This document shows positions 5,744 through 56,734 of a DNA stretch of 64,000 bases, piece after piece. Position 1 is the stretch's first letter. Each line of letters opens with the position of its first letter. Source of the stretch: a virus; IMG/VR virus record IMGVR_UViG_3300024999_000040, positions 1 through 64,000 of that record; one strand, written 5' to 3'. Under the pieces are notes generated by a model that had not been told where the DNA came from, ran no database searches, and saw nothing but the letters and a program-made list of their open reading frames with translations. The position numbers and the translations under genes were made by a program.

Positions 5744-5791
5744 AATATAAAATTTTTAAAAGATAGATTGAGCCTCATAAACTCAATCGAC

Positions 5792-5828
5792 AAGAGTAGG
5801 AATCCTTGTACCCTACTCTTCTTTTATT
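5792..5828 (+). terminator. Intrinsic terminator
   Basis: The stem AAGAGTAGG/CCTACTCTT is followed by CTTTTATT. It closes the 5.1-5.7 kb transcript before the inserted endonuclease gene. Confidence 0.7.
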
Positions 5829-5872
5829 GTTCAAAAAACAAGGAAATATAACATCAAGGAGTGGATATAATA

Positions 5873-8255: not shown

Positions 8256-8268
8256 TTACAAAATCCTC

Positions 8269-8297
8269 TTGACATATCTGTGTATTCGTAATATAAT
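8269..8297 (+). promoter_or_regulatory. Strong sigma-A-type promoter for the agr-like module
   Basis: TTGACA (8269-8274), 17-bp spacer, TATAAT (8292-8297): consensus in both hexamers. It gives the accessory module its own transcription, as expected for a lysogeny-expressed moron. Confidence 0.8.
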
Positions 8298-8330
8298 AGG
8301 ATTATAGATATGTCAGGAGAATTAAAATGA

Positions 8331-8705
8331 ATGAATCATAAGGGTAATAGTATTATTACAAATATAATAAAGATAAAAACCATAATATTTATATTTTTTG
8401 TATCAATAACTTTTTCATATTGTTTAAAAAGTTACATACAAAATAATATATTAATTTTTAATAAAAGCAATGAAATTATCCTTTTCAGTTTATTTATTAT
8501 GATATTTTGGATTATGATTGTTTGCTTGTATTTGATTTATGAAAATAGAACATTAATAAAAGACAATACATTAATTACGTTAGAAAATCAGAAATTATTA
8601 TATAAAATATTAGAGATACAAGAAATTCATTATGATTCTATTATACAATCAAATACTATAACTAAAGAATTAATAATGGATGGTAAAGTAAATGGGGAAA
8701 TATAA
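8331..8705 (+). CDS. Two-span membrane protein, 124 aa
   Basis: Two hydrophobic spans (about residues 15-35 and 49-70) are followed by a charged, possibly helical cytoplasmic tail (residues 72-124) with HYD at about 100. AGGAGA lies about 12 bp upstream; an out-of-frame ATG at 8327 stops after four codons, so 8331 is the start. It is the first gene of a promoter-led unit, overlaps the next gene by 14 bp, and precedes an AgrC-sensor-like gene and an AgrB-like gene. No family is recognised. A membrane partner of that module is the best guess. Confidence 0.5.
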   Translation: MNHKGNSIITNIIKIKTIIFIFFVSITFSYCLKSYIQNNILIFNKSNEIILFSLFIMIFWIMIVCLYLIYENRTLIKDNTLITLENQKLLYKILEIQEIHYDSIIQSNTITKELIMDGKVNGEI

Positions 8706-9048
8706 TAACTATGAAGATATTCATGTTGATTTATGGTTAAAAAGAAATTCTATTAAAGAAAAAGAAGATTATTTAAATAAAGTGATGCATCAACATGGTA
8801 TAAATTGTAATTTTACGCATAATAGATATGGAGAATATGATATTTGGTTTACATATATGAGAAAAAATTATAGAATAGAAATAAATGAACAAGAATTATG
8901 TTACAATTTATTAGAAGAAAATATGGCAGGAATAAAGATGAAAAATAAATATCATCTAGTAGAAAAATTTTATGGAGATGATATTTTATATAAAATAATT
9001 AAATATGTACAAAAAAGAGGTAATGTTAATGTTGGAGTTATTGAGTGA
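8692..9048 (+). CDS. Hypothetical protein, 118 aa
   Basis: A soluble, mixed-charge protein with many Tyr, Asn and Lys residues (YGEYDIWFTYMRKNYRIEIN), with no membrane segment or known motif. It overlaps the upstream membrane gene by 14 bp and the downstream one by 20 bp, indicating translational coupling inside the agr-like module. Function unknown; a cytoplasmic partner of the membrane proteins is possible. Confidence 0.5.
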   Translation: MGKYNNYEDIHVDLWLKRNSIKEKEDYLNKVMHQHGINCNFTHNRYGEYDIWFTYMRKNYRIEINEQELCYNLLEENMAGIKMKNKYHLVEKFYGDDILYKIIKYVQKRGNVNVGVIE

Positions 9049-9517
9049 TATTGGCCTTGTATTTTTAATGAGTAGTTGGATAAATGCATGTATTGTAATA
9101 TGGTGGTTTAAAATAAACAATATTAATATTAGCAAAAAGAAATATATAGTTACTATATTATTATTGTCTGGTTTTCATGCAATAATTCAAAATATTATTC
9201 AACTTTTAGCCCCATTTTTAACTATTATATATTACCCTTTAATTATATCAATAATAACTAGAACAAAATTTCTAAACAATTTATGGATTAATACTAAACT
9301 TTTTATAATTATGTTATTAGTAGAAGCTAGTATTATGATGTTATTAGAATATATTTTTAATGTAAAACTTGTAAAGACAGAATCTATATTATTAACGTTG
9401 ATATATAGTATACCTGTAAGAATCATTGAAGTATTATGTGTATTATTTCTAAGTAAAAGGAGGAATTTTATATGTTTTGGCTATTATTTGGAAAACCGTC
9501 AAAAAAGAAAGATGTAA
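9029..9517 (+). CDS. Polytopic membrane protein resembling an AgrC sensor domain without kinase
   Basis: Starting from ATG 9029 (AGAGG 8 bp upstream) the protein has about 162 residues and roughly five hydrophobic spans (LGLVFLMSS-like start, then ATILLL, LLAPFLTIIYYPLII, IIMLLVEASIMMLL, IYSIPVRIIEVLCVLFL). This layout is like the membrane sensor half of AgrC-type histidine kinases (HPK10), which bind cyclic autoinducing peptides, but there is no H-box or ATPase domain. The C-terminus ends in a basic tail. Its end overlaps the small peptide ORF at 9472. The receptor assignment is inference from topology and from the AgrB-like gene next door. Confidence 0.4.
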   Translation: MLELLSDIGLVFLMSSWINACIVIWWFKINNINISKKKYIVTILLLSGFHAIIQNIIQLLAPFLTIIYYPLIISIITRTKFLNNLWINTKLFIIMLLVEASIMMLLEYIFNVKLVKTESILLTLIYSIPVRIIEVLCVLFLSKRRNFICFGYYLENRQKRKM

Positions 9518-9540
9518 AGAAAGAAGTAATCTGTAAGTAA
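9472..9540 (+). CDS. 22-aa peptide, possible signal peptide precursor
   Basis: A very good site (AAAGGAGGAATTTTAT) precedes this ATG. The product is MFWLLFGKP followed by a Lys-rich stretch and ending VICK. It starts inside the end of the membrane-protein gene in another frame. A hydrophobic N-terminal helix plus a charged tail is the general plan of AgrD-like precursors, but the only Cys is the penultimate residue, which does not fit a standard thiolactone AIP. A terminator separates it from the AgrB-like gene. Confidence 0.4.
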   Translation: MFWLLFGKPSKKKDVKKEVICK

Positions 9541-9561
9541 AACTAAAAACTAAATCAAAGA

Positions 9562-9607
9562 ACACAACGTAAGGGCTATCTATTGAGGTAGTCCTTTTTT
9601 GTTGTGC
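9562..9607 (+). terminator. Terminator/attenuator between peptide and AgrB-like gene
   Basis: An inner stem (GGGCTATC/GAGGTAGTCC) with TTTTTT is embedded in an outer CACAAC/GTTGTG stem, so it could attenuate expression of the AgrB-like gene rather than fully stop it. Confidence 0.6.
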
Positions 9608-9620
9608 TAAAAAAATGTAG

Positions 9621-10154
9621 GTGATAAAAATTTTCGATGCAATAACTGATACGATTATTCATATTTTGATACGATTTAAGTTAATCAAACAAGATCAGTC
9701 TGAAGCAATTTCTTATTATTTTTCTGGTATCTTATGCGAAATATCTATATTCTTTTTTCTAATATTAATTGGATATCATTCTAATCAGATTTTACCCATG
9801 TTGGTTATTCTAATTATATTTTCTGTTCTTAGAGGCTTTGGTGGTTCAGATGAATCTGAAGAAATTTTTCACTTCGATAATCTCGAAACATGCTTTTTTC
9901 TATCTATTCTTTCTCTTTTGGGAATTTTTTATATGTCATTGTTTTTACAAAATTTTATTATACAAATATTTATTATTTGTATAATTTTTATATTTTTCAG
10001 ATTAAGAAATATTATAAACAAAGGTATGATTTTTAAAATTATATTTTTTACTATTTTGATTATGGACTTGATATTAATGTTGCTTGGTATATATCAATTT
10101 GTAAATGCAATTATTTTGACATTATCAGTTGTTATATTTACAGTAACAAAATAA
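9621..10154 (+). CDS. AgrB-like cysteine protease membrane protein
   Basis: This 177-residue polytopic protein follows the AgrB plan: a soluble amphipathic N-terminus, YYFSGILCEISIF at the first membrane region, and then the family signature R-x-x-G-G (R71, G74, G75). In S. aureus AgrB the catalytic His and Cys are seven residues apart; here H84 and C91 keep exactly that spacing, with a seven-residue insertion between GG and His. Known AgrB proteins cleave AgrD to make cyclic signal peptides. The start is GTG 9621 with a weak site. The insertion makes the subfamily unusual, and its substrate is unknown. Agr genes on clostridial phages have been described (C. difficile phiCDHM1). Confidence 0.6.
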   Translation: MIKIFDAITDTIIHILIRFKLIKQDQSEAISYYFSGILCEISIFFFLILIGYHSNQILPMLVILIIFSVLRGFGGSDESEEIFHFDNLETCFFLSILSLLGIFYMSLFLQNFIIQIFIICIIFIFFRLRNIINKGMIFKIIFFTILIMDLILMLLGIYQFVNAIILTLSVVIFTVTK

Positions 10155-24192: not shown

Positions 24193-24339
24193 GTGATTGT
24201 AATAATCAAAATAGATAAAACAAATACAACAGGATTAACAAAAGAAAAGAAAGAAATATTAAAAAATGCAATGGGTTCTTGTAATTGTAAGATTTGTTTA
24301 ACAGATGTTTTGCAGGAATGTCAACTAACCCCCACTTAA
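24193..24339 (+). pseudogene. 5' fragment of a small Cys-containing gene broken by IscB element
   Basis: A GTG start with AAAGGATG upstream opens a 48-codon frame with LTKEKKEILKNAMGSCNCKI followed by CLTDVLQEC. It runs into the left hairpin of the IscB element and stops there. C-x-C-x2-C is like the start of a treble-clef or HNH domain. A convincing 3' half was not found after the element. Confidence 0.35.
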
Positions 24340-24615
24340 AATGCGAAAGCATTTTTGAAGTGGAGGCTTGGAGTAGAAATACTCTGTAGCAGTTGATTAG
24401 CCTCAGTAGTGAAAACTACTACGTTATGGGAAAATATATAGGTACTTCAGGATACTCCACAAGTCCTGAACTCTACGGTCTAAGACTAAACATCTCTGAG
24501 GGTAAGGAGAAGTGTTTTGGACATTAAACTTCCTAATAACATTGGCGATGTGGCTCGACCTTTATCTTTATGCTAAAGGCATTATTTATTAAGTTAAATA
24601 AAGGAGGTATTAAAG
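24325..24615 (+). ncRNA. Omega-RNA of IscB 1
   Basis: About 290 nt without an ORF sits directly 5' of iscB, where known omega-RNAs are encoded. It holds successive stems: the end hairpin, GGAGTA-GAAA-TACTC, TAGTAG(T)GAAAACTACTA, and a CAGGA...TCCTG helix. ACTACTACGTTATGGG is comparable to the GCTACGTTGTTTAGG of the second element. The 15-20 nt before the left hairpin would be the guide. Confidence 0.6.
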
Positions 24616-24620
24616 GAAAC

Positions 24621-25961
24621 ATGGTCTATATTTTAAATTTAAAAGGAGAACCTTTGATGCCTTCAACTAGGCACGGAAAAGTTAAACATCTTCTTAAAGA
24701 AGGTAAGGCAAAAGTAATAAAGAAAAACCCTTTTACTATTCAACTTTTGTATGATACTACAAATTACACTCAATTTATTACACTGGGTATTGATTCAGGA
24801 TACAGTAATATTGGGTTCTCTGCTATATCAGAGACAAAAGAACTTATATCAGGGGAAGTAAAACTCATTAGTAACCAACCTGAACGTACCAGGGACAGAC
24901 AACAATACAGGAGACAAAGACGAAATAAACTTCGTCACAGGAAGCCTCGTTTTGATAATAGGCGAAGAACCAAAGGTTGGTTAGCCCCTACTATACAAAA
25001 CAAACTAGATCAACATATTAAATTGGTTGAAAGAGTTAAATCTTTAATCCCAGTTAATAAAACAATTATTGAAGTAGCAAACTTTGATATACAAGCAATA
25101 AAAGATATTGATATTCAAGGTATAGGATATCAACAAGGTGTACAATATGGATTTTGGAACTTGCGTGAGTATATTTTACATCGTGACAGTCATATTTGTC
25201 AGAATCCTAATTGTAAGCACAAAAAAAATGCACCTAAGTTTGATTATATAAAAAGCAATATACCGTTACAGGTACATCATATTGGTTATTGGCACAATGA
25301 CCGAACAGATAGACCAGAGAATCTAATAACACTTTGTATTCACTGTCATACCTCTGCTAATCACAAGAAAGGTAAATTTCTTTATGAATGGCAGCCGAAA
25401 CTAAAATGCTTTAAATCAGAAACCTTTATGTCAATTATACGGTGGAGATTAGTAAACCTAATTCAAAATGAACACACTTATGGTTTTCTGACCAAAAGCA
25501 AAAGAATTACACTTAATTTAGAGAAAACACATTACAATGATGCTTTTTGTATTGCTGGTGGTTCAACTCAAAAGAGAGTAACCCCCTTAATGATAACCAA
25601 AAAACGCAGAAATAACCGAATACTACAAAAGTTTTATGATGCTAAGTATGTAGACCAACGAACAGGTGAGAAAGTATCTGCTTCAGATTTGCATTGTGGC
25701 AGAAGAAAACGGAATAAAAATTTAAATGACGAGAACCTAAAAAAGTATCGTGGTAAAAAAATAAGTAAAGGCAGAATAACTATAAGAACAAAACGTTATA
25801 AATTACAACCTAATGCAGAAGTAAATTATCAAGGTAAGAAATATCTTGTAACAGGTGTTGTGAATTACGGTAACTATGTAAGGTTAAAAGGATTAAAGAA
25901 GGATATTAAATCAAAAGAGGTACAATTACTTTATCTTAATACAGGGGCTTTAATCTGTTAA
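24621..25961 (+). CDS. iscB: IscB RNA-guided nuclease, element 1
   Basis: 446 residues from ATG 24621 (AAGGAGG upstream). Domains in order: the PLMP domain (GEPLMP at 9-14), RuvC-I (LGIDSG, Asp58), an Arg-rich bridge helix (RRQRRNKLRHRKPRF, about 95-112), RuvC-II (IIEVANFD, about 145-152), an HNH with Cys ligands (ICQNPNC; VHHI near 219; ENLITLCIHCH), RuvC-III (HYNDAF, about 317) and a C-terminal TAM-interaction-like region with RTKRYKLQPNAEVNY. IscB is the Cas9 ancestor and uses omega-RNA to guide cleavage of DNA. All catalytic residues look intact. It probably maintains or spreads the element and may also act on rival DNA. Confidence 0.92.
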   Translation: MVYILNLKGEPLMPSTRHGKVKHLLKEGKAKVIKKNPFTIQLLYDTTNYTQFITLGIDSGYSNIGFSAISETKELISGEVKLISNQPERTRDRQQYRRQRRNKLRHRKPRFDNRRRTKGWLAPTIQNKLDQHIKLVERVKSLIPVNKTIIEVANFDIQAIKDIDIQGIGYQQGVQYGFWNLREYILHRDSHICQNPNCKHKKNAPKFDYIKSNIPLQVHHIGYWHNDRTDRPENLITLCIHCHTSANHKKGKFLYEWQPKLKCFKSETFMSIIRWRLVNLIQNEHTYGFLTKSKRITLNLEKTHYNDAFCIAGGSTQKRVTPLMITKKRRNNRILQKFYDAKYVDQRTGEKVSASDLHCGRRKRNKNLNDENLKKYRGKKISKGRITIRTKRYKLQPNAEVNYQGKKYLVTGVVNYGNYVRLKGLKKDIKSKEVQLLYLNTGALIC

Positions 25962-25990: not shown

Positions 25991-26546
25991 GGCTACTCTG
26001 ACACAAAACTGATAGAGATAGTTTTATAAGCCAATGAATTCGGTCTTTTAACGTGTTTTACTTGATGGCGGGTATGCCAACCGAAATTATCCATTAAAAC
26101 CACAACGACAACATCATAGCACCCCAAAATAAGCTTGGTTGTACGACAGTGGGAGGATAAAACACACAAATAGTTTGTTGATGTCAAATTTGTGTGAAGA
26201 GAAATCAACCATGATACACGTATAGTTGCCTGTCGTATGTGTAAAGTGAATCCTGCTTGGAATAAGCAACAGGAGAAAATCTAAACATCTATAAGGTCGG
26301 AAATGGTTCCCGACACACTTTTGTAATCGAATTCAAAATAATGGAGTGGCTTCGTTCGTTTTGAGTTTGTGAGAAAGTATCTGAGATGCAGGATATGCCG
26401 CCCTGCTGTAGATGTTTGGAAATCTATATAGAGCTTTAGGCTCAATCTTATTTTTATTGTAGAAGGAAACATCCGCATGTCTATACGATTTGCGGATATT
26501 TTCGTGTGTAATAAAATAAAAAAATAAAACAACGGAGGTGGAACGA
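25991..26546 (+). other. Structured non-coding region upstream of recombinase
   Basis: No coding frame is convincing. Several hairpins are visible: GTCGG/CCGAC (near 26297), a 9-bp AATTCAAAA/TTTTGAGTT stem around 26330-26375, GCAGG/CCTGC (near 26395) and ATCCGCA/TGCGGAT with a T-rich tail (26470-26505), the last a likely terminator. The remaining sequence may contain a second structured RNA or remains of the gene broken by IscB 1. Confidence 0.4.
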
Positions 26547-28434: not shown

Positions 28435-29730
28435 ATGGCTAACGACAACTCACAACTTTCCATATTATTACGTGCTAAATTGGATTCCGCACAAGAATCA
28501 TTAAAATCAATAAATTTAGAAATTGATAAGCTTTCTAAAAACCCTGCTTTAAGTAAGTTAAAATTAAAAATTGACATTGATACTAAAAGTGTTGAAGATT
28601 TATTATCTAAGATAAATAAATTACAAGCTGGATTTAATGGCTCTGGTGGTGGAACTGGTTCTAAACCTTTTATAGATGATAATTTAGTAACTGAAAAAAT
28701 TCAAAGAATCAATAATTCTCTTGAACGGTTAAAAATAAATAAAGATAAAGTTTTTGCTGATGTAGGAGTAATAGCAGAAGTTAACAGACTTAAAGAAATG
28801 GAAACTTCATTTAAAAAAGGTGAAGTTACTGCTAGACAATATGCATTACAAATGGATAATGTACGGACTAAAGTTGCTCAAGTTTCTGGTTCGTTTCAAA
28901 ACGTAAATAAAGATGGGTATTCATTTGTTCAAATGCTTGAACTTGCTGCAAAAAAAATAGCAATTTGGGGCTTGAGTACTCAATTGGTGTACGGAAGTTT
29001 CAAACAACTAAAACAGGGAATTTCTTACATTTCCGAATTATCGAATTTTCTCAACGAGATTCAAATTGTAACAAATAGAACTAGTTCTGAAGTTGATAAT
29101 CTAGCAAAAAGTTATAATAACCTTGCAAGAGAAATGAAAGTTACTACAAAAGAGATTGCAGGAGAAGCAGCAAATTTGTACAGACAAGGTTTGGATGATA
29201 CTCAGGTCGAAGAAAGAATGAAGGGTATTATTCAGTATGCGAAGATAAGCAGTATTTCTTTGGCTGATTCTAATAAAATTATAACTGCTACTGCTAATGC
29301 AACTGGACAGTCAATTCAAAAAATTATAGATATTTTTGCATTATTGGGAGATACTACCAGCTCAGGTGCAGATGAAATTGGTGAAGCCCTACAGAGAGTG
29401 GCTTCTGCTGCTGAAAATAGCAATCTATCTTTAGAGAAAACTTCAAGCTGGTTGGCAACAATTTCTAGTATTTCCAGAGAAAGTTCATCAACTATAGGAC
29501 GTTCTTTAAATAGCATTATTTCACGATATGAATCTATAAAAGCTAAAGGCTTTAATGAAGAAGACGCTACAAAAATTAATGATGTTACTAAAGCTCTTTC
29601 TGCAATTAAAATAAATCCCACAGTAAATGGACAATTACGTGATTTGGCTGAAGTTATGGATGAAGTAGGTTCTAAGTGGGATGGATTAACTAAAAATGAA
29701 AAGGCATATATAGCTACTACGATGGCGGGT
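28435..29730 (+). CDS. Tape measure protein, exon 1
   Basis: 432 residues ending exactly at GGT of MAG. An N-terminal coiled coil (KLDSAQESLKSINLEIDKLS) leads into the conserved TMP_TMED-type core (LYRQGLDDTQVEERMKGIIQ, ATANATGQSIQKI, TTSSGADEIGEALQRVASAA, GRSLNSIISRYESI, KNEKAYIATTMAG). Tape measure proteins set tail length and pass through the membrane during DNA entry. The reading frame meets a stop two codons into the intron, and joining to 30706 restores ...TTMAG-TFQRNRF, the usual continuous sequence of this family. RBS AAAGGATG before the ATG. Confidence 0.9.
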
Positions 29731-30705
29731 TAACAAAAAAAGCCCTTTTATACAGTAATGTATATCAATAGTGAACCATATCGGTGAAAGTCTTAGCCGT
29801 AAAGGTCGGAAGATAACGCCGAGATAAGAAATATATAAATATAATGGAGGTAGAATGAGATGAAAAATACATCTTTGTTATCTAATCAATTAGAAATAAT
29901 ATTAGGTGGTCTTTTAGGGGATAGTTCAATTAGAAAAAATACTAATCAAATTAATTTTGGTCATTCAGAAAAACAGTTCGAATATTTAAGTTGGAAACAT
30001 AATGAATTAAAAAGCATAAGTACAAATATAACAAAAGTATTAGTAGATAATAAATATATACGATATAATTTTGAAACTTTAAAAAAAGTTAGTGAAGAAT
30101 TTAAATTTATATCATTATTAATATTTGATAAATTTGGTAAAAAAAGAGTTAATAGAAAATGGTTGAATCAATTAACTCCTTTATCTTTAGCTATATGGTG
30201 GATGGATGATGGTTGTTTATCAATACATAAAGGCAACAGATATGGTAAATTATGTACTCATTGCTTTTCATATGAAGAGCATGAAATAATGAAACAATAT
30301 TTTAAAGTTAAATGGGATATTGATATTCAAATTAAATTAGAAAAAAATGAATATTATTTTTGTAGATTAAATGTAGAAAATTTAAAAAAATTAATAAGTA
30401 TTATATACCCCTATATAATACTTATACCTAATATGATTTATAAAATTGATTTAAATTATATTAACAATGTTAATTTAGGAGATTTTGAAGTAATATATAA
30501 TATTATAAAAAATTCTAAATTAACATAATATATATTTCAATCTTAACGACTGAATGTTCACCTCCTATTTTATAGGATGAAGTCACAGTCTGAACATCTA
30601 TGGAAACATAGAGAGTTGAGGTCAAGTGTAAAGACACTTTTAAGAAGAACCTTAACCACCATATATTAATATGGTCAGTAAGCGAAAGCTGAAAGTAACA
30701 GAATG
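29731..30705 (+). other. Group I intron in tape measure gene
   Basis: 975 nt. The 5' exon ends GCGGGT and its GGGT pairs with GCCC at 29742-29745, with the obligatory U.G at the splice site (P1). The intron ends in G (GAATG). Core elements are visible: GGTGAAAGTCTTAGCC...GGTCGGAAGATAACGCCGAG (P4-P6 side, 29780-29825) and GACTGAATGTTCACC...AGTCTGAACATC (P3/P7 side, 30548-30600). Splicing joins codons GGT and ACA without frame change. The LAGLIDADG gene sits in a peripheral loop. Confidence 0.85.
29860..30528 (+). CDS. LAGLIDADG homing endonuclease, intron-encoded
   Basis: 222 residues with two LAGLIDADG motifs: LGGLLGDSS (about 15-23) and LAIWWMDDG (about 110-118), each ending in the catalytic acidic residue, separated by the expected alpha-beta-beta-alpha spacing. 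It would cut the intronless tape measure allele and drive intron homing. GGAGG precedes the ATG. The gene is inside the intron, after its P4-P6 region, and is more A+T-rich than the exons. Confidence 0.9.
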   Translation: MKNTSLLSNQLEIILGGLLGDSSIRKNTNQINFGHSEKQFEYLSWKHNELKSISTNITKVLVDNKYIRYNFETLKKVSEEFKFISLLIFDKFGKKRVNRKWLNQLTPLSLAIWWMDDGCLSIHKGNRYGKLCTHCFSYEEHEIMKQYFKVKWDIDIQIKLEKNEYYFCRLNVENLKKLISIIYPYIILIPNMIYKIDLNYINNVNLGDFEVIYNIIKNSKLT

Positions 30706-33700
30706 ACATTCCAACGTAATAGATTTATAACCCTCATGAATAATTATGATGATTCTCTTAAAAATTATGAGAATGCTATGAATTCAGCAGGGACAGCTTC
30801 TCAGAAGTTCGCTATTTACCAAGATTCTGTTCAGGCAAAATTGGATGAAGTAACTGCATCATGGGAAGGATTTTGGCAAAATAGTATTAATTCTTCTGTA
30901 ATAAAAACAGTGTTAGAATTATTATCTCAATTAATAGATGGATTTGATAATGTCGGTAGAATAATATTAATTACTTCTGGAATATTTATTGCATTTAAAT
31001 CTAAGGCAATTATTGATTTTATTGTTGGTATTGCCGCCACTATAAAAGGGTTATTTACTTTTACGGCTGCTGCTAACGGTGCTGCCGTTGCTGCTTCTAC
31101 TTTTCAAAAAGCATTAGGTATATTTGGATTAATTACAACTGCCATTACTTTACTGGTTGTTGCTATTGATACACTATCAAATAAACAGGAAAATCTTAAT
31201 AAACAAATTCAAGAAAATATTAATAAATATCAACAACAAAAATCAGCTATAGATCAATTAATTTCATCATATAAACAAAATGCCGAATTAGCAAAAACAG
31301 ATGAAGATGCTAAAAATACTCTTTATGATATTCAAGCTGAATTAGTTACAATATTTGGAGAAAGTGCCAAAGCAATAGATTTAGAAAGTGGTGCTATTGA
31401 TGATAATATTGTCAAGATTAAAGAATTAAATAAAGTTAAATTACAAGAATTTTTAGATGCTAATAAAATAATTGCTGATGAAAATAAAAGAATATTGGCA
31501 GAGCAAAAGTTTGGCACGGCTAGTTTTGATGTTGGTACGTATGGTGCTTCTGTAGGAAAATTTATTACTAATGGTGATAATTTAACTCTTAAAGAATATA
31601 TAGATTCTTTAAAAAAATTAAGAAATGAGTTAAGTACTGGAGCATTACCTGATTATACAATTGATTCAATTAAAGGTGTTCAAAATTTAAACACAGAAAT
31701 TGACAAACAGGAAAAGAAATATAATGAACTAAATGGAATTATAGTTCAAGTTGATACAGCACAAAAACAATTAACTGGTTCAACTGAAAATACAGGTGAT
31801 GTAGTAGAAGATGCAGGAAATAAAATTCAAAAGTACACTCAAGACTTAGACGAACTAAATAAAGTTACCGATTCAGCACAATCCACCTTCAAAGATTTAT
31901 CCTCTATGTATGAACAGGTTAACGAAGGTCAAGAACTCAACAATGATCAAATGCTTGATTTAATTCAAAATTATCCTGTCGTTCTTAATTATATGGATTC
32001 TGAAGGTAATCTCCTAGTATCTCAAACAGATTTATTAAAGATTCTTTTTGAAGCCAAAAAAGCAGACCTTAAATTAACGCTTCAAACTGAGAAAGACAAA
32101 GCAGATGCAGTTATTAGAAGTTTAGAAGTTCAAAGAGATGCATATTTAGGGTTTTATAGTGCTATAGGAGCTACTTTAGGATATTCTGAAGAACAAGCAG
32201 CAACCATGTTTGGTTTTGATAAAGAATCGTATGATAAAGCAGTTGTGGCAGCTAAAGATGCACAGGCTAAAATTAATGCTTTAGATAAGTTGACTTTTAA
32301 GGATTATAGTGGTAAAAAAACTAGTTCTAGCGGTAAAGAAATAGATGCTAATCTCTCCCTTATCGAAAAGGACAGATATTCCCAACTAGAAGCCTCTCTA
32401 AATAAAACGGATGTTTTATTGGAAAAAAATAAAGCACTTCAAGCACTTCATGAAGATGATATTTCTTTAATGAAGGAGGAGCAACAACTTCTTAAACAGA
32501 AGCAAGATCAATTGCATCTCATAAATGAAGAACGCCGTAAAGAACGTGATGAACTTCAAAAATCTATGTCTTCTCAGGGGTTTAGTTTTAGTGGTACTGG
32601 GGACTCTACCTCTGTTGCAAATTACACAAATGTAATTAATAAACTTACTGATGATGTGAACAAACACAGAACCGATAAAGATAAAACTTATTACAATACT
32701 CTAAAACAACGTCTTGAAGATGCACAGAATAATTTTAAAAGATTTAATGAACTTCAGATTAATGAAATTCCTAAAGCATCTATTGAATGGTGGAATTTGC
32801 AAAAAGCTATAGGAGATGTTGATGCTCAGATTTTAGAGACAACTGAAAATCTTGCAGAAGAACGTCTTCAAAACTTAGCTGATGTTGAAAAACAACTTGT
32901 AGAAATTATCAAGCAAGGTGTTCAAGATAAGATTGACGTTTTAGAAAAAGAACATGATAAAGAAATGGAATTGCTTGAAGAACGTCATGATGCTCGTATT
33001 GAATCATATGAAGATGATTTAGATGAATTTGAGGATTACACTAATGAGAAATTAGGACTTCTTGAAGATCAATATGATGAAGAAGATTTTCTTAAAGAAC
33101 TTTCAAAGAAACGTAAAGAAGCTAATGAGATTCAGCAGAAAATAAATGAATTATCTCTTGATGATAGTCTTGAAGCTCGTACTAAAGTTGCTGAATTAGT
33201 AGAAGAATTAGCAGATAAAGAAACAGAAATTACTAAATTCAAAACTGATAGAGAACGTACATTAAGAAAAGATGGCTTATCTGATCAATTATCTGATTAT
33301 CAAAAATATATTCAAGAGTTGAAAGATAAAGAGAATGACAGATACGAAACTAAAAAAGATATTCTTGAAGATGAATATGAAGAAGATAAAACTCGTTTAA
33401 ACAAACAATTAGAAAATGAATCTTTATATGCTGAAGCCAGAAAATTATTAATGAATAGTACTTTGGAAGAAATTGCTGAAAAATTTGATTTGTTTTCAGA
33501 TAAATTTGGTGAAGGATTATCTGTTTTAGGAGATAAAATTCAAAACGAATTTATTGAAAAACTTAAAGATGCTTTAGCTTTAATTGAAGAAATGGGTGGA
33601 TTTGATATTGAAACTGGTACTTCTGGAAGTTCTTCAATTATAGATAAAATGAAACAAAATTCTGCTGCTTGGTTTGATGCTTCTGCTTCAGAAAAAGAAC

Positions 33701-34140
33701 GTCTTGCTAATGAAAATCTTGAATTGGGTACATCTCTAGGTTGGGTTCGTAAAGATGATGGGCATTGGTATAAACCAGATGGTACTAGAGCATATGCCAG
33801 TGGAACATTAAGTGCTAAAGCAGGATTAGCCAAAGTTAATGAACAAGGTACAGAACTTAGAGTTTTAAATTCTGGTGATGGTATTGTAAATGCTGGTTTG
33901 ACTAAGAATCTTATTGATTTTGCTAAAATTGCTCCTGATTTCTTGAATAATTTTAAGTTTCTTACTCCAAAATTACCTAATATATCAGGTGGTAATGGAA
34001 TGACAATTGATGCTTCTATTACAGTTGTTGGTAGTGTGGATAAGTCGTTTATGTCTCAATTGGAAAAATCTCAAAATAATCAACTCGATAAAATAATAAA
34101 GAGTGTAAGTAGGACTACTGTGGGTAGAGGGAGTTTTTAA
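30706..34140 (+). CDS. Tape measure protein, exon 2
   Basis: 1144 residues continuing from exon 1 (total about 1576). It begins TFQRNRFITLMNNYDDSLKN, has a hydrophobic pair of segments (IILITSGIFIAF, LGIFGLITTAITLLVVAI, about 85-165) that could be the membrane-inserting region, then a very long Lys/Glu coiled coil (about 560-960). The end (YASGTLSAKAGLAKVNEQGT, GDGIVNAGLTKNL) is typical of Firmicute tape measure C-termini. No muramidase or peptidase motif is seen. The next gene is Dit. Confidence 0.92.
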   Translation, partial: TFQRNRFITLMNNYDDSLKNYENAMNSAGTASQKFAIYQDSVQAKLDEVTASWEGFWQNSINSSVIKTVLELLSQLIDGFDNVGRIILITSGIFIAFKSKAIIDFIVGIAATIKGLFTFTAAANGAAVAASTFQKALGIFGLITTAITLLVVAIDTLSNKQENLNKQIQENINKYQQQKSAIDQLISSYKQNAELAKTDEDAKNTLYDIQAELVTIFGESAKAIDLESGAIDDNIVKIKELNKVKLQEFLDANKIIADENKRILAEQKFGTASFDVGTYGASVGKFITNGDNLTLKEYIDSLKKLRNELSTGALPDYTIDSIKGVQNLNTEIDKQEKKYNELNGIIVQVDTAQKQLTGSTENTGDVVEDAGNKIQKYTQDLDELNKVTDSAQSTFKDLSSMYEQVNEGQELNNDQMLDLIQNYPVVLNYMDSEGNLLVSQTDLLKILFEAKKADLKLTLQTEKDKADAVIRSLEVQRDAYLGFYSAIGATLGYSEEQAATMFGFDKESYDKAVVAAKDAQAKINALDKLTFKDYSGKKTSSSGKEIDANLSLIEKDRYSQLEASLNKTDVLLEKNKALQALHEDDISLMKEEQQLLKQKQDQLHLINEERRKERDELQKSMSSQGFSFSGTGDSTSVANYTNVINKLTDDVNKHRTDKDKTYYNTLKQRLEDAQNNFKRFNELQINEIPKASIEWWNLQKAIGDVDAQILETTENLAEERLQNLADVEKQLVEIIKQGVQDKIDVLEKEHDKEMELLEERHDARIESYEDDLDEFEDYTNEKLGLLEDQYDEEDFLKELSKKRKEANEIQQKINELSLDDSLEARTKVAELVEELADKETEITKFKTDRERTLRKDGLSDQLSDYQKYIQELKDKENDRYETKKDILEDEYEEDKTRLNKQLENESLYAEARKLLMNSTLEEIAEKFDLFSDKFGEGLSVLGDKIQNEFIEKLKDALALIEEMGGFDIETGTSGSSSIIDKMKQNSAAWFDASASEKERLANENLELGTSLGWVRKDDGHWYKPDGTRAYASGTLSAKAGLAKVNEQGTELRVLNSGDGIVNAGLTKNLIDFAKIAPDFLNNFKFLTPKLPNISGGNGMTIDASITVVGSVDKSFMSQLEKSQNNQLDKIIKSVSRTTVGRGSF

Positions 34141-41381: not shown

Positions 41382-41588
41382 ATGGAGTTACTGTTCACAC
41401 CCCCTTAAGCAGTTTAAAATAAATTGTGTCGCAATAATCAACTCGTAACCCAAAACATAGAATCATCAGTAGCAAAAAGACTTTGAAACCATTGAAATTT
41501 CAAGGTTTTTTTGCATTTTTTATTGACATAAATATGGTTATGTGATATACTTAACACATAACCATATTTATCTGAGGAGGTCTTGATT

Positions 41589-44358: not shown

Positions 44359-44429
44359 TGTGTGGAAATTTCTCAGTAAATTAAGTAAATATAATAATAC
44401 AATTTTATTAGGAAAAGAGGTAGCAATAG

Positions 44430-44655
44430 TCAACCACCCACGACCCTAAAGGGTCGGGGCTTGCAAAAGTCTGATTGACTAGACTAAGCGAAAAGCTACG
44501 TTGTTTAGGTCATGATACCCAAGAATATTTATCCTAGTTCTTGGCTCTATCGTATAGTATTAAAAGTTCTAAGAGGTAGGAACGGTGTACTATATACAAC
44601 AAGCCTTTACAACATTGTCTAAGGATATTAACTCTAATATACGGAGGTTTTAAAA
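44430..44655 (+). ncRNA. Omega-RNA of IscB 2
   Basis: About 220 nt with stacked stems and GCGAAAAGCTACGTTGTTTAG, matching in part the corresponding segment of the first element; also AGTTCTTGGC/TCCTAGTT and AGAGGTAGGAACGG pieces. It ends a few bases before the iscB GGAGG. Confidence 0.6.
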
Positions 44656-44660
44656 ACAAA

Positions 44661-45899
44661 ATGGTATATGTATTAAATATTCAAGGCAATCCAATTATGC
44701 CTTGTAAAGAAGCAAAAGCAAGAAAGTTACTTAGAGACAATCTTGCAAGAGTAATTAAGAAAGAACCTTTCACTATTCAATTGATTTTTGAATGTGAAAA
44801 TCAAGTGCAAGATATTACTCTTGGAATTGATGCAGGAAGTAAGATAATAGGTATATCTGCTACTACTGATAAACAAGAATTATATTCATCAGAGGTTGAA
44901 TTGAGGAATGATATTGTAGATTTACTGGCTACTCGTAGACAAAATAGACGCACAAGAAGAAACAGACTTAGATATAGAAAAGCTAGGTTTCTCAATCGTG
45001 TAGGTAGTAAAAACAAAGGATGGCTTGCACCTAGTATTGAAAACAAAATACAAACACATTTGAGTATTGTTGAGAAACTTTATAAGATACTGCCTATATC
45101 TAAAATTATAGTTGAAGTAGCATCATTTGATATTCAAAAGATTAAGAATCCTGATATACAGGGTGAAGAATATCAGCAAGGTGAAATGATGGGATGGAAT
45201 GCAAGAGAATATGTATTATTCAGGGATGGACACCAATGTCAAGGTAAAAAAGGTTGTAAGAATAAAATATTACGAACACATCATATAGAATCAAGGAAGA
45301 CAGGGGGAGATACACCGAATAATCTAATAACTTTATGTAAAGAATGTCATGATGATTATCATTTAGGTAAATTAAAACTTAATCTAAAACGTGGCAAATC
45401 ATTTAGAGATGCGGCTTTTATGGGTATTATGAGATGGGCATTTTATAATAAACTTAAAGAAATATATCCCAATGTAAGTTTGACATATGGGTATATAACT
45501 AAGAACACAAGAATTGAAAATAAACTACCAAAAGAACATAGGATTGATGCATTGTGCATTAGTGGTAATCCATTAGTTAAAAGATTGGATAGCTATTATT
45601 ATATTAAGCAAGTAAGAAAACACAATAGACAAATACACAAAGCAAATATCTTAAAAGGTGGAATCAAAAAACTAAATCAAGCACCATATGAGGTAAAAGG
45701 ATTTAGATTATTTGATAAGGTCAAATACAAAGGACAGGAGTGTTTTATATTTGGAAGAAGAAGTAGTGGATATTTTGATTTGAGAAAACTTGATAGAACA
45801 AGTATTCATAAATCTGCAAGTTATAAGGATTTAGAATTAGTAAGTAAAAGAAATAGTTTATTAATTGAGAGGAGAAAGGCGATTCCTCCACTCCCCTAA
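44661..45899 (+). CDS. iscB: IscB RNA-guided nuclease, element 2
   Basis: 412 residues. PLMP domain variant (GNPIMPC), RuvC-I (LGIDAGSK, Asp57), bridge helix (RRQNRRTRRNRLRYRKARF), RuvC-II (IIVEVASFD), HNH (CKNKILRTHHIESRKTGGD, NNLITLCKECHDDYH), RuvC-III (EHRIDALCIS) and a C-terminal domain with GFRLFDKVKYKGQECFIFGR. It is only moderately similar to IscB 1, so the two elements arrived separately. All catalytic residues are present. GGAGG precedes the ATG. Confidence 0.92.
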   Translation: MVYVLNIQGNPIMPCKEAKARKLLRDNLARVIKKEPFTIQLIFECENQVQDITLGIDAGSKIIGISATTDKQELYSSEVELRNDIVDLLATRRQNRRTRRNRLRYRKARFLNRVGSKNKGWLAPSIENKIQTHLSIVEKLYKILPISKIIVEVASFDIQKIKNPDIQGEEYQQGEMMGWNAREYVLFRDGHQCQGKKGCKNKILRTHHIESRKTGGDTPNNLITLCKECHDDYHLGKLKLNLKRGKSFRDAAFMGIMRWAFYNKLKEIYPNVSLTYGYITKNTRIENKLPKEHRIDALCISGNPLVKRLDSYYYIKQVRKHNRQIHKANILKGGIKKLNQAPYEVKGFRLFDKVKYKGQECFIFGRRSSGYFDLRKLDRTSIHKSASYKDLELVSKRNSLLIERRKAIPPLP

Positions 45900-56593: not shown

Positions 56594-56619
56594 ACCTCAT
56601 GAAAATTATAACATGAGGT
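56594..56619. promoter_or_regulatory. Inverted repeat over the integrase ribosome binding site
   Basis: ACCTCATG (56594-56601), 10 bp, CATGAGGT (56612-56619): a perfect 8-bp dyad that could bind a repressor or hide the Shine-Dalgarno in an RNA hairpin. Confidence 0.5.
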
Positions 56620-56734
56620 ATATTTTTAATCAAGGTTTATACACCAATTTTGACACCAATACCGTTATAAAACTATATAAAAACTTGTAAATGGTTGTAA
56701 AGTAAAAGGGAGTTTAGAGTATATATTTAAGCAA

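What the first reader, a model, noticed from the sequence alone, without database searches (positions are those of the whole stretch)
8269..10154. agr-like peptide signalling module on the phage
A consensus promoter drives genes for a two-span membrane protein, an unknown protein, an AgrC-sensor-like membrane protein, a 22-residue peptide and an AgrB-like protease. The AgrB-like protein keeps R-x-x-GG and the His/Cys pair at the same seven-residue spacing as S. aureus AgrB, with a seven-residue insertion. No histidine kinase or response regulator is present. Known: one C. difficile phage carries agr genes. Inference: the phage may make, modify or intercept a peptide signal to influence lysis-lysogeny or host quorum sensing, next to the antirepressor gene.
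Basis: partly seen in the sequence, partly recalled or inferred. Interest (0 to 1): 0.8.

Follow-up and report, generated by a model that had tools for sequence, protein, structure and literature searches.

The report
Phage peptide-signalling module with RNA lock
Three distantly related large phages carry the same small gene set, related to a bacterial peptide-signalling system but without its kinase or its usual peptide, and an RNA hairpin appears to switch it off when the phage makes its virion proteins; it is a new variant of a rare, known kind of phage gene cassette.

Summary
The AgrB-like ORF passes the Pfam AgrB cut-off (29.6 vs 23 bits), and its syntenic homologues score 69-80. H84 and C91 are invariant. 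The five-gene order (2-TM protein, 118-aa soluble protein, 5-TM protein, short peptide, AgrB) recurs in two other large phage lineages at 24-45% identity. The 5-TM protein matches AgrC/GHKL sensor domains by profile (45 membrane decoys do not), but no GHKL kinase, LytTR regulator or classical AgrD occurs in the records held. The short peptide is real by position and ribosome site in all three phages. It is unlike known AgrD: 15-27 residues, no leader, no Cys in the core, aromatic-Phe-Gly then a basic tail. Best reading: a promoter-autonomous accessory module making a processed peptide in lysogens or early infection. Phage agr cassettes are known, so this is a new variant. Target and function are unproven.

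The parts
8266..8319 (+). Hairpin in read-through RNA (5' arm 8266-8287, 3' arm 8299-8319) that hides the Shine-Dalgarno AGGAG 8315-8319; the 5' arm lies upstream of the expected transcription start (about 8304)
   Evidence: Fold -26.7 kcal/mol, z -5.5, 0 of 200 shuffles as good; counterparts in L007 (z -5.1) and L008 (z -3.6; different sequence, pairing kept). SD unpaired probability 0.003 in read-through RNA vs 0.74 in own-promoter RNA.
8269..8297 (+). Sigma-A type promoter TTGACA-17-TATAAT, conserved in both relatives (L008 TTGACA-17-TATAAT; L007 TTGACA-18-TATATT)
8331..8705 (+). 124-aa protein with two membrane spans and a charged C-terminal tail
   Evidence: homologues L007 7977-8402 and L008 5832-6176, 30-34% identity
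8692..9048 (+). 118-aa soluble protein (p118), predicted helix-helix-five strands-helix; found only in these phages
   Evidence: 45% and 32% identity; 1 borderline match in 291 Clostridia
9029..9517 (+). Kinase-less membrane protein related to AgrC/GHKL sensor domains (ORF open from 9005; ATG 9029 has the ribosome site)
9472..9540 (+). 22-residue peptide MFWLLFGKPSKKKDVKKEVICK; SD -12.2 kcal/mol; same place in L007 (MMISTEKWWFGDIKRR) and L008 (MGGFYFGKPAKVNTQKQTETKKEEVKK)
9571..9596 (+). Intrinsic terminator between the peptide and agrB, with an outer stem CACAAC/GTTGTG; counterparts in both relatives
9621..10154 (+). AgrB-family membrane peptidase-like protein, 177 aa (probable start AUU 9630); H84 at 9870-9872, C91 at 9891-9893; six-residue insertion before His, about 20-residue loop deletion

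Best explanation
The region is a promoter-autonomous accessory module (a 'moron') inserted in the tail-fibre region of the late strand of a large phage of Bacillota affinity that carries an integrase. SHOWN by sequence: three diverged phages keep, in order, a 2-TM protein, the small soluble protein p118, a kinase-less AgrC-type sensor domain, a very short peptide with a strong ribosome site, a terminator, and an AgrB-family protein with invariant His and Cys. SHOWN by calculation: RNA that reads in from upstream hides the first gene's ribosome site, while RNA started at the module's own sigma-A promoter does not. INFERRED: the module is therefore made in lysogens and/or early infection and shut off in late virion transcripts, as a reversed version of T4 genes e, soc and I-TevI. 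INFERRED: AgrB, made at a lower level by reading through the terminator and from a weak start codon, cuts the basic tail off the aromatic peptide (near the F-G-K/D-P/I junction) and releases the N-terminal part as a signal. INFERRED: the lone sensor domain binds this peptide or a host peptide and passes the information to p118 and the 2-TM protein, or to a host kinase, since no phage kinase or regulator of the Agr type was found. Probabilities by step: Agr-derived module 0.9; RNA lock works 0.75; peptide is the AgrB substrate 0.5; the product acts as a signal 0.4.
For: AgrB: Pfam 29.6 bits here, 69.1 and 79.8 in the relatives; H and C invariant also against C. thermobutyricum. Conserved order and p118/sensor/AgrB homology. 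Sensor: hhalign score 55.6 against five AgrC/GHKL sensor domains and 41.6 against six lone clostridial sensors, versus 23.7 at most for 45 membrane decoys, 12.7 for reversed profiles and 10.7 for AgrB. A lone sensor ORF directly upstream of agrB in 6 of 30 clostridial loci read, so kinase-less sensor plus AgrB is a real cellular arrangement. Peptide: small ORFs with an SD this strong occur 0.047 per kb on this strand, yet one lies in the sensor-agrB gap of all three phages. Lock: z -5.5/-5.1/-3.6; SD unpaired 0.003/0.002/0.001 versus 0.74/0.54/0.80; least accessible of 14 SD-bearing genes; the only strong case among 20 promoter sites in the record. T4 precedent (PMC3014915, PMC2988022). Late tail context: Mtd_N-like neighbour.
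Against: The peptide lacks the leader, the core Cys and the acidic PxxP tail of AgrD, and no AgrD model matches. This phage's AgrB has a broken GG-to-His spacing, a loop deletion and the longest branch of the tree (2.06), so it may be altered or decaying. A terminator precedes agrB. The single-sequence signal of the sensor is weak. Nothing shows what p118 does (no significant fold match). The palindrome at the promoter could also be a DNA operator. Only three phage lineages are known, and no expression data exist.
Confidence: 0.45

Rival explanations
1. Host-signal interference: the phage makes no signal of its own. The kinase-less sensor acts as a decoy or dominant-negative partner of host AgrC (dimeric, from general knowledge) and the AgrB-like protein competes for or misprocesses host AgrD, so the lysogen is deaf to its host's quorum signal.
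For: Sensor domain without kinase and AgrB without a recognisable AgrD; AgrB-type agr loci occur in 59 of 148 Clostridia sampled.
Against: The short peptide is positionally conserved with a very strong ribosome site; p118 and the 2-TM protein would have no role; whether the host has agr is unknown.
Confidence: 0.2
2. Superinfection exclusion or lysogenic conversion: three membrane proteins and a short amphipathic peptide sitting among tail-fibre genes alter the envelope; AgrB was recruited to mature or export a membrane-active peptide rather than a signal.
For: Own promoter and insulation from late transcripts typical of prophage-expressed accessory genes; tail-fibre context; hydrophobic-aromatic N-terminus and basic tail of the peptide.
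Against: The AgrC-type sensor domain would be unexplained; no match to a known exclusion protein in Pfam, PHROGs or NCBIfam (the PADLOC library was not searched).
Confidence: 0.2
3. Leader-peptide attenuator: the short ORF and the terminator control agrB by translation-coupled attenuation, and the peptide itself has no destiny.
For: Short ORF followed by a terminator and then the gene, in all three phages.
Against: The predicted folds of the three terminators show no alternative antiterminator; the peptide keeps an aromatic-F-G motif and a basic tail rather than regulatory codon runs.
Confidence: 0.12
4. The copy in this phage is a decaying passenger of a once functional agr-like cassette.
For: AgrB with insertion before the catalytic His, deleted loop, no good AUG start, long branch.
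Against: All ORFs intact, promoter 12/12 and hairpin intact, H and C kept.
Confidence: 0.1

Closest known systems
Brevibacillus phages Davies and Abouo (and Emery): kinase-less membrane protein(s) - AgrB - putative AgrD (PMC3901668; records KC595518, KC595517)
   Same: Phage-borne AgrB with kinase-less membrane proteins directly upstream; the AgrBs group with these phages' AgrBs in the tree (91/94; Bacilli chromosomes not sampled); peptides without Cys but with a G-N/S-P site
   Different: Their membrane proteins are about 220 aa and show no profile similarity to ours; the peptide is about 40 aa and downstream of agrB; no p118 or 2-TM gene; located next to the integrase, not among tail-fibre genes; an RNA lock was not looked for there
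C. difficile phage phiCDHM1 agr3 locus (agrC-agrB-agrD, no agrA)
   Same: agr genes on a phage without a response regulator
   Different: phiCDHM1 has a kinase-domain AgrC and a 45-aa AgrD with a PxxP motif; none of these is found here
Clostridial agr loci with upstream non-kinase genes (C. perfringens CPE1563-CPE1562-agrB-agrD, PMC2706048; C. thermobutyricum L029/L034)
   Same: Small sensor-like membrane protein directly upstream of agrB without a kinase
   Different: C. thermobutyricum has a classical AgrD downstream of agrB (L034 1259-1396); p118 and the 2-TM protein are absent; whether CPE1562 itself is such a sensor was not tested
T4 genes e, soc, 49 and I-TevI: ribosome site hidden in read-through RNA, freed by an internal promoter (PMC3014915, PMC2988022)
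   Same: Promoter inside the 5' arm of a hairpin whose 3' arm holds the Shine-Dalgarno site
   Different: In T4 a late promoter frees the gene and early RNA is locked; here a sigma-A promoter would free it and late read-through RNA would be locked (inferred)

Membership tests
AgrB (PF04647) | Profile score over the curated cut-off | tested here: met
   29.6 vs 23 bits; syntenic relatives 69.1 and 79.8
AgrB (PF04647) | Conserved Arg, Gly, His and Cys of the active region | tested here: met
   R71, G75, H84, C91 invariant against L007, L008 and C. thermobutyricum; GG-to-His spacing altered by a six-residue insertion
AgrB (PF04647) | His and Cys close together in the fold | tested here: inconclusive
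   Model pLDDT 57, active region below 50
AgrB (PF04647) | Peptidase activity on an AgrD-type peptide | not testable with these tools
   needs co-expression and mass spectrometry
AgrC histidine kinase | Polytopic N-terminal sensor domain | tested here: met
   hhalign score 55.6 vs 23.7 at most for 45 membrane decoys
AgrC histidine kinase | GHKL kinase domain | tested here: not met
   ORF ends after the membrane part; no HATPase_c_5 in the records held
AgrD pre-peptide | Match to TIGR04223, leader, Cys/Ser core, acidic PxxP tail | tested here: not met
   No match over the cut-off (one 13.4-bit hit in G000 on the other strand, not at the peptide; control C. thermobutyricum 42.8 bits); no Cys in the core of any of the three peptides
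AgrD pre-peptide | Short ORF adjacent to agrB with a charged C-terminal tail | tested here: met
Complete Agr system | AgrA-type LytTR response regulator | tested here: not met
   No LytTR in G000, G002, G003, G004 (records may be fragments), found in G001
T4-type ribosome-site lock | SD hidden only in read-through RNA, promoter inside the 5' arm | tested here: met
   by calculation in three phages
T4-type ribosome-site lock | Translation differs between the two transcripts in vivo | not testable with these tools
   needs reporter fusions
Arbitrium (AimR/AimP) | AimR-type TPR receptor in the module | tested here: not met
   No such family among the module proteins in Pfam, NCBIfam or PHROGs; the rest of the record was not searched for AimR

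The most novel reading that the evidence does not exclude
A new class of phage peptide signal: a leaderless, Cys-free aromatic peptide (MFWLLFG-, MGGFYFG-, MISTEKWWFG-) released by an AgrB-family protease, perhaps linear, formylated or closed through its N-terminus instead of a thiolactone, read by a kinase-less AgrC sensor domain coupled to a phage-specific protein, and confined to the prophage or early state by an RNA hairpin that silences the module in virion-stage transcripts.
Probability: 0.28. Interest if true: 0.85.

Novelty: new variant of a known kind. Interest (0 to 1): 0.58.

Why it matters
Phage communication is known chiefly from arbitrium and a few agr-bearing phages. Here is an agr-derived module kept by three diverged large phages with a peptide unlike AgrD, a receptor domain without a kinase, and a built-in RNA switch that suggests when it acts. 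The module is small and its mutants (C91A, peptide stop, 5'-arm change) are easy to make in laboratory Bacillota strains, so the questions of what a kinase-less AgrC domain does and whether AgrB can mature a Cys-free peptide become directly testable. Similar lone sensors sit upstream of agrB in ordinary clostridia, so the answer would carry over to them.

Tried and rejected
Close relatives by single-sequence search: none in phage records, plasmids, viral contigs or genomes; relatives were reached through the downstream gene 10265. Further scans with p118, AgrB, sensor and g5348 profiles found no additional lineage. Relatives of the virus record cannot be drawn by the genome tool. AgrB active-site geometry by structure prediction: model too poor. 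p118 fold search: no significant match in PDB; best viral match is an uncharacterised phage protein (TM 0.67-0.73); a weak VCH_CASS14 likeness (Pfam E 0.034, PDB E 0.29) was not followed. Rotated-profile controls for the sensor were discarded as an improper null because they keep local similarity. Brevibacillus phage membrane proteins as homologues of our sensor: not supported. Rfam: no known RNA in the module. The antirepressor as a functional partner: rejected on synteny. No solved AgrB-like structure matched by sequence.

Full report
What was checked. The window is the first 64 kb of a 148.7-kb virus record. Its tape-measure protein has distant relatives in large Bacillus (SPbeta group), Brevibacillus (Sundance), Psychrobacillus and other Bacillota phages. 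Bases 1-55 kb carry the + strand tail and lysis genes; the integrase lies at 55.4-56.6 kb on the other strand, and most of the remaining genes follow on that strand. The reported ORFs, the perfect promoter at 8269 and the AgrB-like ORF are all present.

AgrB. The 177-aa ORF passes the curated PF04647 cut-off (29.6 vs 23 bits). Its syntenic relatives in L007 and L008 score 69.1 and 79.8 bits. The three phage proteins, also when compared with a C. thermobutyricum AgrB, keep R71, G75, H84 and C91. In this phage six extra residues (SDESEE) lie between GG and His, and about 20 residues of a later loop are missing. Its branch is the longest in a 35-protein tree. There the three phage AgrBs group together (91/86) and then with Brevibacillus phages Davies and Abouo (91/94), apart from 30 clostridial AgrBs; cellular AgrBs of Bacilli were not available, so a single phage origin is not shown. 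The GTG start has almost no ribosome site; AUU at 9630 has one (-9.7 kcal/mol) and fits the homologues' N-termini.

The module is real. Searching with the gene downstream of agrB (10265) found two further phage lineages: a 349-kb contig (L007) and three contigs with the same locus (L008, L010, L011). In both, the same order stands between homologues of g5348 and g10265: 2-TM protein, p118, 5-TM protein, short peptide, terminator, AgrB. Identities to the window are 30-34% (2-TM), 45/32% (p118), 24/37% (5-TM) and 26/30% (AgrB). The HNH gene (5861) and the antirepressor (7419) of the window are absent from that place in both relatives, so they are insertions; L008 carries its own HNH gene after agrB. 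p118 was not found in Clostridia apart from one borderline partial match in 291 genomes.

The 5-TM protein. The three phage sequences as a profile match five AgrC/GHKL sensor domains (hhalign 55.6, probability 95.7) and six lone clostridial sensors (41.6, 88.1), but not AgrB (10.7), the 2-TM protein (15.6) or reversed sensor profiles (12.7). Against 45 membrane proteins from two Clostridia the best score was 23.7, while six of eleven single sensor sequences scored 24.3-33.6. In 6 of 30 clostridial agrB loci a kinase-less sensor-like ORF lies directly upstream of agrB; in C. perfringens two non-kinase genes upstream of agrB are co-transcribed with it and were part of the only complementing construct (PMC2706048). 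No HATPase_c_5 or LytTR domain was found in the phage records, with the clostridial genome as positive control; the records may be fragments.

The peptide. A short ORF with a strong ribosome site lies between sensor and agrB in each phage: MFWLLFGKPSKKKDVKKEVICK (-12.2 kcal/mol), MMISTEKWWFGDIKRR (-12.9) and MGGFYFGKPAKVNTQKQTETKKEEVKK (-19.2). On the window's + strand only three ORFs of 13-40 codons have a site of -11 or better (0.047 per kb), and only this one has an aromatic-G-[KDNS]-[PI] motif. There is no leader, no Cys in the core and no AgrD-model match. The Davies and Abouo peptides are also Cys-free and have G-N-P and G-S-P sites, which makes F-G-K-P a plausible cleavage region; that is inference.

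The RNA lock. The promoter is conserved in all three phages and is wrapped in an inverted repeat. RNA containing both arms folds with z -5.5, -5.1 and -3.6; RNA from the expected start does not. The Shine-Dalgarno bases are unpaired with probability 0.003, 0.002 and 0.001 in read-through RNA and 0.74, 0.54 and 0.80 in own-promoter RNA. In L008 the paired sequences differ and the 5' arm sits in the spacer rather than on the -35 box, yet the Shine-Dalgarno pairing is kept, which favours an RNA role over an operator. This is the only strong case among 20 promoter-plus-SD sites in the record and the least accessible of 14 SD-bearing genes in the window. T4 genes e, soc, 49 and I-TevI work this way (PMC3014915, PMC2988022). 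Here the polarity would be reversed: late read-through RNA is silent and the sigma-A transcript is active. That the upstream RNA is a late transcript is inferred from the tail-fibre neighbourhood (Mtd_N-like ORF 1285-2148).

Interpretation. The best-supported reading is a promoter-autonomous accessory module expressed in lysogens or early infection, in which an AgrB-family peptidase matures a short aromatic peptide and a kinase-less AgrC-type sensor takes part in reading it. Rivals are interference with a host agr system, superinfection exclusion by membrane components, attenuation by the short ORF, and decay of this copy. Literature: phiCDHM1 (agrC, agrB, agrD) and the kinase-less cassettes of Davies, Emery and Abouo were reported in 2014 (PMC3901668). 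The concept is therefore known; the p118/2-TM partners, the peptide type, its place before agrB, and the hairpin lock are the new elements in what I could search.

Limits. Three phage lineages, no host identification, no expression data, a poor AgrB model, and no functional hint for p118 beyond its predicted fold.

Noticed in passing
window 24320-24559 and 44429-44632 (+): Two HEARO RNAs (RF02033, 117.8 and 140.5 bits), each directly upstream of a phrog_119 HNH endonuclease (24570-25961 and 44661-45899). From general knowledge HEARO is the guide RNA of IscB-type systems, so this phage may carry two of them.
   Followed up: partly
window 28435-34140 (+): The tape-measure gene appears split: ORFs 28435-29733 and 30703-34140 both match tape-measure family phrog_4211, with a LAGLIDADG endonuclease ORF (29860-30528, PF03161 114.5 bits) between them; no Rfam intron was found there.
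   Followed up: partly
window 41523-41583 (+): Another promoter covered by a near-perfect palindrome (about -21 kcal/mol) ending just before the GAGGAGG of the 104-aa ORF at 41583: a possible operator or second RNA switch.
   Followed up: no
window 56595-56640 (-): The integrase gene has its TATAAT inside a small hairpin (CCTCATG...CATGAGG) that pairs its Shine-Dalgarno bases, the same principle as in the agr-like module, with a weaker stem (-11.4 kcal/mol).
   Followed up: no
window 26286-26414 (+): Skipping-rope RNA (RF02924, 63.6 bits).
   Followed up: no
window 5749-5871 and L008 7780-7908: About 125 bases upstream of the HNH genes are 81% identical between the two phages although the genes sit at different places (before versus after the module), as if the HNH unit moves with its leader.
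   Followed up: no
window 8327-8341; L008 5824-5844: In two of the three phages the best-spaced ATG after the first Shine-Dalgarno site opens a tiny ORF (MNES*, MYFERL*) overlapping the start of the 2-TM gene; unexplained.
   Followed up: no
L034, L036, L048, L051, L059, L060: Kinase-less AgrC-like membrane proteins of 151-184 aa directly upstream of agrB in clostridial genomes; the AgrBs of all six loci fall in one supported clade (9 rows, 100/99), and the role of the lone sensors is undefined.
   Followed up: partly
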